From assembly GCA_039696685.1 (NCBI GenBank), contig CP155566.1, forward strand, positions 1,116,001 through 1,180,000: a stretch of 64,000 bases of DNA. Reading direction: 5' to 3'. Each line of letters starts with the position of its first letter. The first letter of the stretch is position 1. Positions 506-62,635 of this stretch are shown in pieces. A program made the position numbers and the translations under genes. Origin of the DNA: Vibrio sp. CDRSL-10 TSBA. GTDB lineage: Bacteria; Pseudomonadota; Gammaproteobacteria; Enterobacterales; Vibrionaceae. The notes under the pieces are model-generated. The model saw nothing but the letters and a program-made list of their open reading frames with translations, had not been told where the DNA came from and searched no databases.

Positions 506-3500
506 ATGTTCAAAGAGAACAACAATAAAGTTGAGACCATTATTAAGACGAGTGAAGAGCCTCAGTCTTCTCGCCTCAATGGAGCACAACGTCTACGTGA
601 ATGCGGCCTGATTCTGGCCGTATTGGCTTCTATTCTTCTTGCCGTCGCCCTGCTGACTTTCAATCCGGCGGATCCTTCCTGGTCGCAAACGGCCTGGGGC
701 TCAGATATCCAGAAACGCCGGTGGCATCGTCGGTGCCTGGGTGGCCGATACCCTGTTTTTTGTTTTTGGCTCATTGGCCTATCCGCTACCGGTCATCCTG
801 ACCGCAACAGCCTGGATTTTGCTGCGTAACCGCGATGCCGATGAAAACATCGATTTTATGTTGTGGGGCACCCGTCTGCTGGGCTTAGTGGTTCTGATGC
901 TGACCAGTTGCGGTTTAGCGGATATCAACTTTGACGATATCTGGTATTTCTCCTCCGGCGGTGTGGTCGGGGATGTGCTCTCCAGCCTGGCTCTGCCGAC
1001 TCTCAACGTGCTTGGTACCACTCTGGCGCTGCTTTTCCTGTGGGGGGCGGGTTTCACTCTGCTGACCGGTATTTCCTGGCTGAGTATTGTCGAGCGTCTC
1101 GGTGAAGCGAGCATCCGTGGCTTTAACCGTTTCTTGAACCGCATGCGCGGTGAAAAAGATGAACTGGTCTCACCACAACTGATGTCTGCGCGAATCGACG
1201 AGCGCAGTGAACCTGCCTTTGCTGCCGATAACCATTTGTTGGATGGATTCGGAGCAGAAGACGATGATTTAGCGGCAGATCCGCTCACCGGCAAGTCAGA
1301 GCCGATGTTGAGCGCGCAGGCTGCCCGACAGGCGAAACCAGAGCCACAAGCGCAGGTTAGTTCCCCTCGGTCTGCAGACAATGAACGCCGTTTTAATATT
1401 CATATGCCGGAACGCAGCGAGCCTGTGGTCAGCAAAGCGCAGCCAGCGGTTGAGCCGGTGTCAAACCAGGCAGCGCCTGGTCAGACTATGTCAAGTCAGA
1501 CAAGCCAGCCAGTTCAGGCTCAGCCTGTGAGTAAGCCGGCACCGGTTTATCAATACGAGCAGGATGAGTCCGATAAGCCGGATCGCACGAGTCAGTTGGC
1601 TTCTACGATTGAAGAACTGGAGTTTGCTGCCCGCGAGCAGGATGACTGGGCAGATGATACCTTGCCTTGGGATGAAGAAAACGATGATCTCCAGCCTGAG
1701 CCTGTTCAGTCACAGCCTGCGGCCTACACCGCAGAACCTGTCATTGAGGAAGAACCATTCAGAGCACCTCGCGTTGATGTCCAGGAATTCGATCAAACCA
1801 TCGCTGATGTCGAGCAGGATGACACGCACATTGAGCCGACGATTTCTAATTTTGATGTGCTGGATGACGAAGAACCGCGACAGCCTGAGATGTCGGCTGG
1901 CTACCAGGATGCTGCTGAGGATGATCAACCGGAGTGGCTGGACGAAGAAGACGATGAGCAGGATCAGGATGTGACAGCGTTCCAGAATATGGTCTCTGAG
2001 GCTCAGGCCAATATGGCCGGCAAACAGAATCCGTTCCTGGTGCAGCAAGAGGTCAATCTGCCTAAGCCGGCTGAACCGATGCCGACTCTGGAACTGCTCT
2101 ATCATCCTGAGAAACGTGAAGACTTTATTGACCGCGAAGCGTTGGAAGAGATTGCCCGTCTGGTGGAGTCCAAACTGGCTGATTACAAGATCCAAGCTGA
2201 GGTTGTGGATATCTTCCCTGGACCGGTGATCACCCGTTTTGAGCTGGATCTGGCTCCCGGGGTTAAAGTCAGCCGTATCTCCAGCCTGTCGATGGACTTG
2301 GCGCGTTCCTTGTCTGCGATGGCCGTCCGGGTGGTGGAAGTGATTCCTGGTAAACCTTACGTTGGTCTTGAATTGCCAAACATGAGCCGTCAGACCGTGT
2401 ATCTGTCAGATGTAATTAACAGCCCGCAGTTTGAGCAGTCTAAATCACCGACAACTGTGGTACTGGGCCAGGATATTGCCGGCGAAGCAGTAGTGGCCGA
2501 TCTGGCCAAGATGCCGCACGTACTGGTGGCAGGTACCACGGGCTCAGGTAAATCGGTCGGTGTGAACGTGATGATCCTGAGTATGCTGTACAAATCCACG
2601 CCGGAAGATGTACGTTTCATCATGATTGACCCGAAAATGCTCGAGCTGTCGATTTATGAAGGTATTCCGCACCTGCTGTCTGAGGTGGTGACCGACATGA
2701 AAGACGCATCCAACGCCCTGCGCTGGTGTGTGGGTGAGATGGAGCGCCGCTACAAGCTGATGTCTGCTTTGGGTGTGCGTAATATCAAAGGCTTCAACGA
2801 TAAGCTAAAAATGGCGGCTGAAGCGGGTCATCCGATCCATGACCCATTGTGGCAGCCTGGTGACAGCATGGATCCTGAAGCGCCACTGCTGGAGAAACTG
2901 CCTTATATCGTGGTCGTGGTCGACGAGTTTGCTGACCTGATGATGGTGGTGGGTAAGAAAGTCGAAGAGCTGATTGCTCGTCTGGCTCAGAAAGCACGTG
3001 CTGCGGGTATTCACCTGATACTGGCGACCCAGCGTCCGTCAGTGGATGTCATTACCGGCCTGATTAAAGCCAATATTCCGACCCGGGTTGCGTTTACCGT
3101 ATCAACCAAGACGGACTCGCGTACCATTCTTGACCAGGGCGGGGCAGAATCACTGCTCGGTATGGGTGACATGCTGTACTTGCCGCCTGGCTCAAGCCAC
3201 ACGGTGCGGGTGCATGGTGCGTTTGCCTCAGATGATGATGTGCATGCGGTGGTGAATAACTGGAAAGCACGCGGTAAACCTAACTATATCACTGAAATTA
3301 CCAATGGCGATCAAGGGCCGGAAGGCTTGCTGCCAGGTGAAAAAATGGAGAGTGACGAAGAAGTGGATCCGCTGTTTGATCAGGTGGTCGAACACGTGGT
3401 GGAAACACGTCGTGGTTCTGTTTCCGGGGTGCAACGTCGCTTTAAAATCGGCTATAACCGTGCCGCACGTATCGTCGAACAGCTGGAAGCGCAGGGGATT

Positions 3501-3560
3501 GTCAGCGCGCCAGGCCACAATGGTAACCGTGAGGTTTCTGGCTCCGGCACCGCCCCGTGA
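506..3560 (+). CDS. ftsK: FtsK, DNA translocase (split by +1 insertion at 712-716)
   Basis: Septal DNA pump that segregates chromosome ends and activates XerCD at dif. The frame starts with ATG 506 (MFKENNNKVE), and then moves by +1 at GAAAC 712-716. Removing one A joins SDIQ to NAGGIVGAW and gives about 1017 residues. Membrane segments fill the first ~200 residues. A long acidic, Pro/Gln-rich linker follows to about residue 520, then the RecA-like motor with Walker A (GTTGSGKS, about 674-682) and Walker B (VVVVDEFADLMM, about 801-811). The C-terminal winged-helix gamma domain (RRFKIGYNRAARIVEQLE) covers about 953-1011. Because the motor and gamma domains are intact and FtsK is needed for division, the shift is read as a sequence error. 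No lolA gene follows, consistent with what I recall of V. cholerae. Confidence 0.95.
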
Positions 3561-3607
3561 CTAAGTCAGCCTGCTAGCTGCAGGTTAAAGACTTTGAGCA
3601 AATAAAG

Positions 3608-3633
3608 AAGGCGCCTTATCGGGCGCCTTTTTG
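3608..3633 (+). terminator. ftsK terminator
   Basis: Stem AAGGCGCC / GGCGCCTT with loop TTATCG followed by TTTTG, 48 bases after the ftsK stop. The run of T on the + side serves ftsK; dsbB converges from the other side. Confidence 0.8.
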
Positions 3634-3671
3634 TCATTCTGGTCTCAACTAATATTCGTTTATCAAGCTTC

Positions 3672-61239: not shown

Positions 61240-61265
61240 TTTATCCGTACAGCTTTATCCGTACA
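61240..61265. repeat. direct repeat TTTATCCGTACA x2
   Basis: Identical 12-mers at 61240-61251 and 61254-61265, period 14, upstream of yebC. Confidence 0.8.
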
Positions 61266-61348
61266 ATTCTCAACCAGCAACATTGTGACAACGATTGCGA
61301 GCACGCACAAACGTCACCAGTCATGAAACCAAGCAGTAAGGAAATCCT

Positions 61349-62098
61349 ATGGCAGGTCACAGTAAGTGGGCAAACATCCGACATCGCAAAGCGGCGCAAG
61401 ACGCCAAACGCGGTAAAATTTTTACTAAGCTGATCCGCGAAATCGTGGTGTCAGCCAAAGAGGGCGGCGCGGAAGTGGAAAATAACCCGCGCCTGCGTGC
61501 AGCGATAGACAAAGCGCTCTCCAACAACATGACCCGTGACACCATTAACCGAGCGGTCGCGCGTGGCGCCGGCGGTGAAGGTGATGAAGGGATGGAAACC
61601 GTGATTTATGAAGGTTACGGTCCGGGAGGCACCGCGGTGATGGTCGAGTGTCTGACCGACAACCGCAACCGCACCGTATCCGGTGTTCGGCATGCTTTTT
61701 CTAAAGCGGGCGGAAACCTGGGGACCGATGGCAGCGTCAATTACCTGTTCGACAAGAAAGGCGTCATCTCTTATCAGCCGGGTCTGGAAGAAGATGAGGT
61801 GATGGAAGTGGCACTGGAGAGCGGTGCAGAAGACATCGACACTGCCGCAGATGGTGCGATTGATGTGTACACCACACCGGAAGAGTTTGGCGCGGTGAAA
61901 GACGCCCTGGATGAAGCCGGTTTTGCCGCCGACAATGCCGAAGTGACCCTGGTTCCTGCTACCAAAGCGGAACTCGATGAGGAGACGGCTCCTAAACTGC
62001 TGCGCCTTATTGATGCACTGGAAGATCTCGATGACGTACAGGAAGTCTATCATAACGGTGATATCTCTGATGAGATTGCCGCAACGCTCTCGCTTTAG
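61349..62098 (+). CDS. yebC: YebC/TACO1 family translation-associated protein
   Basis: A 249-residue protein of the YebC family. It starts MAGHSKWANIRHRKAAQDAK, the family signature, and continues with TKLIREIVVSAKEGGAEVENN. YebC proteins bind the ribosome and ease translation of proline stretches; older annotation calls them transcription regulators. It lies 14 bases before ruvC, forming the yebC-ruvC unit seen in most gamma-proteobacteria. Confidence 0.95.
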   Translation: MAGHSKWANIRHRKAAQDAKRGKIFTKLIREIVVSAKEGGAEVENNPRLRAAIDKALSNNMTRDTINRAVARGAGGEGDEGMETVIYEGYGPGGTAVMVECLTDNRNRTVSGVRHAFSKAGGNLGTDGSVNYLFDKKGVISYQPGLEEDEVMEVALESGAEDIDTAADGAIDVYTTPEEFGAVKDALDEAGFAADNAEVTLVPATKAELDEETAPKLLRLIDALEDLDDVQEVYHNGDISDEIAATLSL

Positions 62099-62112
62099 AA
62101 CAGGAAGACAAC

Positions 62113-62635
62113 ATGTCGATTATTCTGGGCATTGACCCGGGTTCACGTATCACAGGTTACGGTGTGATTCGTCAGCAGGGACGGCATCTGCATTATCTCG
62201 GCAGCGGTTGTATCCGTATGTCGGAAAAAGAGCTGCCGCTGCGTCTCAAGCAGATTTACGCAGGCGTAAGCGAGATCATCACTCAGTTTCAGCCGGATGT
62301 GTTTGCGATAGAACAGGTGTTTATGGCTAAGAAACGCCGATTCAGCGCTTAAACTCGGCCAGGCGCGCGGCAGTGCGATCGTGGCGGCCGTGAATGCCGA
62401 ATTGCCGGTGTTTGAATACGCGGCCCGTCTGATTAAACAGGCGGTGGTGGGAATCGGTGGCGCCGACAAGGCCCAGGTCCAGCACATGGTGCAGCAGATG
62501 CTCAAGTTGCCGGCTAAGCCGCAGGCCGATGCCGCGGATGCGCTTGGGGTGGCAATTTGTCATGCCAACACCAATAAAACCCTGGTGGCTCTGGCCGGAC
62601 ATGCGACCAGCGCCCGACGCGGCCGATACCGTTAA
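62113..62635 (+). CDS. ruvC: RuvC, Holliday junction resolvase, split by +1 insertion at 62331-62335
   Basis: Endonuclease that cuts Holliday junctions within the RuvABC complex. The start MSIILGIDPGSRITGYGVIR carries the first catalytic Asp. FAIEQVFMAK carries the catalytic Glu. At GAAAC 62331-62335 the frame shifts; removing one A gives MAKNADSALKLGQARGSAIV and 173 residues, exactly the E. coli length. The last catalytic acids are in KPQADAADALGVAICH. yebC lies directly upstream. Confidence 0.96.

What the first reader, a model, noticed from the sequence alone, without database searches (positions are those of the whole stretch)
712..62335. Fourteen single-base insertions, all GAAC read as GAAAC
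Every broken frame in the window is repaired by removing one base, and in all fourteen cases that base can be an A in GAAAC (or a T in GTTTC): ftsK 712-716, card1 7858-7862, mcp 9799-9803, mfd 20512-20516 and 22008-22012, lolD 24686-24690, msbA 30650-30654, spoVR 33213-33217, DUF3360 44706-44710, xthA 50184-50188, DUF2057 56082-56086, ppiB 59015-59019, cysS 60426-60430, ruvC 62331-62335. GAAC lies on the + strand in nine and on the - strand in five, so gene sense does not matter. Longer A and T runs in coding DNA are not broken, which speaks against a general homopolymer error. Many GAAC sites stay intact (for example 21-24 in lrp), so only a subset is hit.
Basis: seen in the sequence. Interest (0 to 1): 0.92.

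Follow-up and report, generated by a model that had tools for sequence, protein, structure and literature searches.

The report
Sulfur-marked DNA misread as gene breaks
The broken genes in this Vibrio sequence are almost certainly reading errors and not mutations: they sit at the short DNA word that a bacterial defence system marks with sulfur, so the errors appear to trace where the sulfur marks lie.

Summary
All 14 listed places read GAAAC/GTTTC. Comparison with Vibrio furnissii finds 13 of the 14 breaks independently, plus one straddling the window's right edge; the DUF2057 break rests on a shortened Pfam match. Over 784 kb of the same chromosome, 130 of 429 matched genes hold 140 breaks; of 119 cleanly placed, 114 lie within 6 nt of GAAAC/GTTTC (random 4.0%). 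0 of 369 long homopolymers has a clean break beside it.

A DndBCDE/DptFGH locus lies 16-34 kb right of the window. Dnd enzymes put phosphorothioate sulfur at about 4-12% of GAAC/GTTC, and nanopore reads err there (PMC9069010, PMC9521924). Two of four published flank preferences are reproduced. A second DndC-positive Vibrio assembly shows the same breaks; two assemblies without a DndC over the cut-off break elsewhere. Against: 11 other DndC-positive genomes show no break at GAAAC in the 20-40 kb sampled. The sulfur, the platform and the causal link are inferred.

The parts
506..3560 (+). ftsK, read as two overlapping pieces
   Evidence: Pieces 506-829 and 741-3560; FtsK_4TM profile split between them; break at GAAAC/GTTTC
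7571..8732 (-). Card1-like CARF nuclease gene in two pieces
   Evidence: Card1_endonuc split over two ORFs, CARF_Card1 in one; break found
55464..56123 (+). DUF2057 gene; break inferred from the profile match only
   Evidence: Pfam PF09829 positions 1-161 of 192; not found by the V. furnissii comparison

Best explanation
The frame breaks are errors in the deposited sequence, not mutations. The strain has a DndBCDE phosphorothioation locus with its DptFGH restriction partner. DndCDE would replace a backbone oxygen by sulfur between G and A (or G and T) at a subset of GAAC/GTTC sites. When unamplified DNA is read on a long-read platform whose base-caller was not trained on phosphorothioates, most likely nanopore, sites modified in most molecules are called with one extra base in the short A/T run, and without accurate short-read polishing the extra base stays in the consensus. 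Shown here: the breaks, their motif, sign, strand balance and flank preference, the dnd locus, and a second assembly with the same combination. Inferred: that this strain's DNA carries sulfur at GAAC/GTTC, that the platform was nanopore, and that the sulfur causes the miscall.
For: Motif: 114 of 119 cleanly placed breaks lie within 6 nt of GAAAC/GTTTC, against 4.0% of random coding positions. Of 512 strand-merged pentamers GAAAC leads with 114 (4.5 expected); the next, AGAAA with 61, overlaps it. Sign: the frame shift between matches is +1 in 119 of 140 breaks. Not homopolymers: 0 of 369 long runs. Scale: 130 of 429 matched genes broken, ftsK among them. Machinery: DndC 550, DndB 481, DndE 87 and DptH 1018 bits, each over its NCBIfam cut-off, DndD in two pieces; DndF 706, DndG 585, DndH 1649 bits in PADLOC; DndE matches the solved DndE 4lrv at 159 bits. 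V. furnissii, the reference, has no DndC match. Literature: 97.4% of mapped PT sites in Salmonella Cerro 87 are GAAC/GTTC, 12% of all such motifs (PMC9521924, section 7); nanopore errors at 3.9% of GTTC and 4.4% of GAAC in Salmonella, falling to none detectable and 0.6% in a dndC mutant (PMC9069010, Results part 1); here 3.1% are hit. Flanks: M at -1 in 84 of 114 against 1557 of 3557 intact sites (p 3e-10), K at +1 in 77 of 114 against 1716 of 3557 (p 5e-5), as PMC9521924 reports. Second genome: G086, chosen because its DndC is split, has homologous Dnd proteins (DndC piece 79%, DndE 82% identical); 9 of its 13 break clusters lie within 6 nt of GAAAC/GTTTC (random 3.1%). G066 (no DndC match) and G136 (best match 20.5 bits, cut-off 290.4) have 3 and 7 clusters, 0 at GAAAC.
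Against: 11 other DndC-positive Vibrio genomes (20 kb each, 40 kb for G201) have 3 break clusters in all, none at GAAAC; other platforms or polishing would explain this, but I do not know them. Two further published flank preferences, C at -2 and G at +2, are not significant here (40 and 50 of 114). In vitro, flanks of GAAC/GTTC had no effect on PT (PMC4515589, passages), so the flank effect could come partly from the base-caller. 21 of 140 breaks were not cleanly placed; 17 of those 21 have a GAAAC/GTTTC within 30 nt of the junction, 4 do not, one of the 4 being a single missing base. 5 of 119 clean ones lie further than 6 nt, at 8, 9, 9, 10 and 152. 'Clean' demands a one-base gain, so losses cannot enter the 119. 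In G086, 3 of 13 clusters are 15 nt or more from GAAAC, and one more such cluster seen did not recur. The reverse comparison, own ORFs against V. furnissii, gave 14 breaks, 9 of them -1, not followed further. The paper passages I read do not name a one-base insertion as the error type. No reads, platform record or DNA chemistry were available.
Confidence: 0.87

Rival explanations
1. A base modification at GAAC, or a methyl-plus-sulfur hybrid at the same site, causes the miscall.
For: Wadley et al. note, citing Chao 2017, that methyltransferase and sulfurtransferase share GATC and GAAC/GTTC substrates (passage). A dnd-associated putative methyltransferase (TIGR04096, 709 bits) lies in the locus. 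Modification-mediated nanopore errors at other motifs are known (PMC10687267, passages).
Against: No strongly constrained column lies beyond about 6 nt of the word, and only 3.1% of sites are hit, which would be unusual for a methylase (inference). The second genome shares the Dnd locus. No search for GAAC methylases was made in either genome.
Confidence: 0.08
2. General long-read homopolymer error.
For: The broken place is a short A/T run.
Against: 0 of 369 long homopolymers has a clean break beside it; near the 119 breaks GAAAC occurs 114 times, CAAAC 2 and CAAAG 1, the three flank pairs printed. In G136, which has no DndC over the cut-off, breaks do fall in or near G, C and T runs.
Confidence: 0.01
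3. Real one-base insertions, for example PT-linked mutagenesis, phase variation or programmed frameshifting.
For: The letters stand in the deposited sequence; letters alone cannot exclude PT-linked mutagenesis.
Against: 130 of 429 matched genes are broken, ftsK among them, while V. furnissii has these frames open; both strands and both gene senses are hit alike.
Confidence: 0.02

Closest known systems
Dnd phosphorothioation-restriction systems with GpsAAC/GpsTTC (Salmonella Cerro 87, E. coli B7A)
   Same: DndB, C, D, E and DptF, G, H present; hit word GAAC/GTTC; a small subset of sites; M at -1 and K at +1
   Different: Sulfur not measured; C at -2 and G at +2 not seen; sites known only through sequence errors
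Nanopore detection of phosphorothioates by error signature (Wadley 2022, PMC9069010)
   Same: Raised errors at GAAC/GTTC in native DNA, dependent on dndC
   Different: There a read-level comparison with amplified DNA; here a fixed one-base error left in a consensus and visible as broken genes
Modification-mediated errors in nanopore assemblies (Chiou 2023, PMC10687267)
   Same: An untrained modification leaves systematic motif-bound errors in consensus genomes
   Different: There Listeria, motifs GCAGC and GCTGG, mismatches (passages); here GAAC/GTTC, a one-base gain, probably backbone sulfur

Membership tests
Dnd phosphorothioation system | DndC sulfurtransferase | tested here: met
   TIGR03183 550.3 bits, cut-off 290.4
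Dnd phosphorothioation system | DndD and DndE | tested here: met
   DndE 87 bits, cut-off 71.85; DndD in two ORFs, 246.7 and 234.7, cut-off 245.85; the one GAAAC/GTTTC in the junction stretch searched is a GTTTC
Dnd phosphorothioation system | DndB regulator and DptFGH (DndFGH) restriction proteins | tested here: met
   DptH lacks about the first 300 profile positions in its main ORF
Dnd phosphorothioation system | DndA or IscS cysteine desulfurase | not tested
   No search made
Dnd phosphorothioation system | Sulfur in the backbone at GAAC/GTTC | not testable with these tools
   Only indirect, through the error motif
Modification-mediated long-read consensus errors | Errors confined to a motif that the strain's modification system targets | tested here: met
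   114 of 119 cleanly placed breaks; the target motif is taken from homologues in the literature
Modification-mediated long-read consensus errors | Errors vanish in amplified DNA or short reads | not testable with these tools
   No reads held
Homopolymer error | Rises with run length, any flank | tested here: not met
   0 of 369 long runs with a clean break within 6 nt

The most novel reading that the evidence does not exclude
The broken sites are the subset of GAAC/GTTC that carry sulfur in nearly every cell, so the letters of an unpolished assembly are already a base-resolution phosphorothioate map. Public long-read assemblies could then be mined for PT epigenomes without reads, and the flanking rule found here (rarely T before, rarely A after) is part of how Vibrio Dnd enzymes choose their sites.
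Probability: 0.5. Interest if true: 0.7.

Novelty: new variant of a known kind. Interest (0 to 1): 0.55.

Why it matters
130 of 429 matched genes in the sampled part of this genome are, on this reading, wrongly broken, which corrupts annotation, pseudogene counts and completeness scores; dndD here and dndC in the second genome are among the victims. Conversely, the errors hint that a strain carries active phosphorothioation, and roughly where. How Dnd picks a small share of identical short words is an open question (PMC9521924, PMC4515589) that such maps could help test.

Tried and rejected
Homopolymer error, real mutation and a long methylase motif were considered and rejected or ranked low (see rivals).

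E. coli as a further test: 204 of 5,426 complete genomes have a DndC relative. I saw the listing of 60 of 225 records for the E. coli dnd locus and opened one record whose locus is 11 bases longer than most, with one reference. dndB-E and dptF-H are annotated intact in both, and the difference lies between the dnd and dpt genes; some other features in the stretches are flagged as pseudogenes. No frame-break count was made. RefSeq's screening against frameshifted assemblies (recalled) makes that set a poor test.

A DndC survey of 394 genomes of the order (22 over the cut-off) listed no further DndC in out-of-frame pieces. In the genus survey G038 also had DndC in pieces, but on two contigs; it was not followed.

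Chromosome C1 of this genome was not tested: four C1 stretches were fetched, but the one trial found little matching reference. G006, G211, G092, G222 and G175 (DndC-positive) and G065, G062, G068, G072 (no DndC match) were located but not fetched.

Literature searches for PT-caused assembly errors. In those listings I saw no paper that reports fixed insertions at GAAC in assemblies; subscription journals are mostly missing and no bioRxiv preprints are held. PMC12506013 (methylation-related nanopore errors) has no mention of GAAC, GTTC or phosphorothioate (term search).

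Full report
What was claimed.

Check of the letters. All 14 coordinates read GAAAC (9) or GTTTC (5). The window is G000:C2:1116001-1180000 of a 4.90 Mb, two-contig genome with 95.9% completeness and 4.55% contamination. Among named genomes the best match of the protein at 24867-26108 is Vibrio furnissii, 86% identical.

Independent search for breaks. ORFs of at least 100 aa from V. furnissii CIP 102972 (G061; no DndC match) were compared by tblastn with the window's chromosome; places where the match jumps frame were located by a short DNA alignment. 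'Clean' means exactly one frame-changing gap there, a one-base gain. In C2:1096001-1480000 there are 52 breaks (357 reference ORFs, 198 matched), 43 clean and 9 not; 43 of 43 lie within 5 nt of a GAAAC/GTTTC centre, where 1.84 would be expected within 6 nt. The DUF2057 site rests on a shortened Pfam match. Matched genes cover 53,271 of the window's 64,000 bases. The reverse comparison, own ORFs against V. furnissii, gave 14 breaks, 9 of them -1; I did not follow it.

Enlarged sample. For C2:1096001-1880000 (784 kb, 16% of the genome) 690 reference ORFs were used, 429 matched, 452,478 nt were aligned, and 140 breaks were found in 130 genes; the shift is +1 in 119 of 140. 119 breaks are clean: 114 within 6 nt of GAAAC/GTTTC, 4 at 8-10 nt, 1 at 152 nt. 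Of the 21 not clean, 17 have a GAAAC/GTTTC within 30 nt of the junction; one of the other 4 is a single missing base. The chance rate within 6 nt is 4.0%. Among 512 strand-merged pentamers GAAAC leads with 114 (4.5 expected); the next seven share letters with it or its near flanks. 0 of 369 long homopolymers has a clean break within 6 nt. The hits fall 56 on one strand and 58 on the other. Intact GAAC/GTTC in the same genes number 3,557, so 3.1% are hit.

The cause. GAAC/GTTC hit at a few per cent of sites recalls Dnd phosphorothioation. A family search found DndC at C2:1208745-1210145. In L084 (C2:1200001-1220000) lie DptH, a DGQHR protein, DndE, DndD (two pieces), DndC, DndB and a dnd-associated methyltransferase; DptF and DptG are at L083:16009-19142. 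The set spans about C2:1196009-1213540, 16-34 kb right of the window's end, dndE to dndB at 26-31 kb. DndD is itself split, and a single GTTTC and no GAAAC lies in the junction stretch searched, L084:7280-7560.

What is known of Dnd sites. In Salmonella Cerro 87, 97.4% of mapped sites are GAAC/GTTC and 12% of such motifs are modified (PMC9521924, section 7). In E. coli carrying that dnd cluster, and similarly in Cerro 87, modified sites prefer C at -2, M at -1, K at +1, G at +2 (section 11). Nanopore reads of Salmonella show errors at 3.9% of GTTC and 4.4% of GAAC, falling to none detectable and 0.6% in a dndC mutant (PMC9069010, Results part 1 of 2). Here M at -1 is 84 of 114 against 1557 of 3557 intact sites, and K at +1 is 77 of 114 against 1716 of 3557; C at -2 and G at +2 are not significant. 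T at -1 is almost absent (2, 43.1 expected) and A at +1 is rare (8, 35.9 expected). Beyond about 6 nt no column is strongly constrained.

A second genome and controls. 29 of 227 Vibrio genomes have DndC over the cut-off. G086 was chosen because its DndC lies in out-of-frame pieces; a GTTTC lies at that junction, and its Dnd proteins are homologous (DndC piece 79%, DndE 82% identical). In 360 kb of G086, 9 of 13 break clusters lie within 6 nt of GAAAC/GTTTC (random 3.1%) and one at 7; the other three are at 15, 62 and 372 nt, the last in a C run. In the first 60 kb one further cluster, 361 nt from GAAAC, was seen but not. Of the 10 within 7 nt, M at -1 holds in 9 and K at +1 in 7. G066 (no DndC match) and G136 (20.5 bits, far below the 290.4 cut-off), both with contamination scores of 4-5, have 3 and 7 clusters, none at GAAAC; G046, for which one search lists no DndC match, has none. 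Against the reading, 11 other DndC-positive genomes (G201, G094, G173, G208, G214, G144, G044, G050, G145, G210, G107) have 3 clusters in all, none at GAAAC. I take this to mean other platforms or short-read polishing; that is inference.

Why not mutation. With 130 of 429 matched genes broken, ftsK among them, the sequence is most unlikely to describe a living cell, and V. furnissii has these frames open.

Mechanism, step by step. Shown: motif, sign, rate, strand balance, flanks, dnd locus, second genome. Inferred: sulfur in this DNA, nanopore platform, and that the sulfur distorts the signal so that one extra A/T is called. A methyl-plus-sulfur hybrid at the same site is possible (passage in PMC9069010). 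In vitro, flanks have no effect on PT (PMC4515589, passages), so part of the flank effect may belong to the base-caller.

Verdict. The finding is an artefact of sequence determination, but an informative one: the errors probably mark where an epigenetic system acts. Related facts are known: nanopore sees PT (PMC9069010), and untrained modifications damage assemblies (PMC10687267, passages). In searches I saw no report of PT leaving fixed frame breaks in assemblies. At 0.31 breaks per aligned kb the whole genome may hold over a thousand; that is an extrapolation from one stretch of one chromosome.

Noticed in passing
L084:6585-8598 (G000:C2:1206585-1208598): dndD, one of the genes for the modification, is itself split in the assembly, with a GTTTC in the junction.
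   Followed up: partly
L084:35-4229 and the end of L083: dptH also looks broken: its main ORF matches only profile positions 299-1256 of 1256 (TIGR03237) and 302-1418 of 1678 (PADLOC), while the G086 homologue is one ORF of 1690 aa.
   Followed up: no
L157/L158 (G086:C2 near 668165): dndC of the second genome is split at a GTTTC; the system seems to spoil the record of its own gene.
   Followed up: partly
L084:11513-13540: A dnd-associated putative methyltransferase (TIGR04096, 709 bits) sits next to dndB; its role is unknown.
   Followed up: no
window 7571-8732: A Card1-like CARF nuclease gene (type III CRISPR accessory, by recall) lies in the window; no CRISPR search was made.
   Followed up: no
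L132-L135 (G066, G136): Two assemblies without a DndC over the cut-off have frame breaks of another kind, mostly a missing or extra base in or near G, C or T runs.
   Followed up: partly
L084:5035-6186 and L157:15397-16560: Both dnd loci carry a DGQHR-domain gene that scores below the TIGR04172 cut-off of 450 (173 and 353 bits).
   Followed up: no
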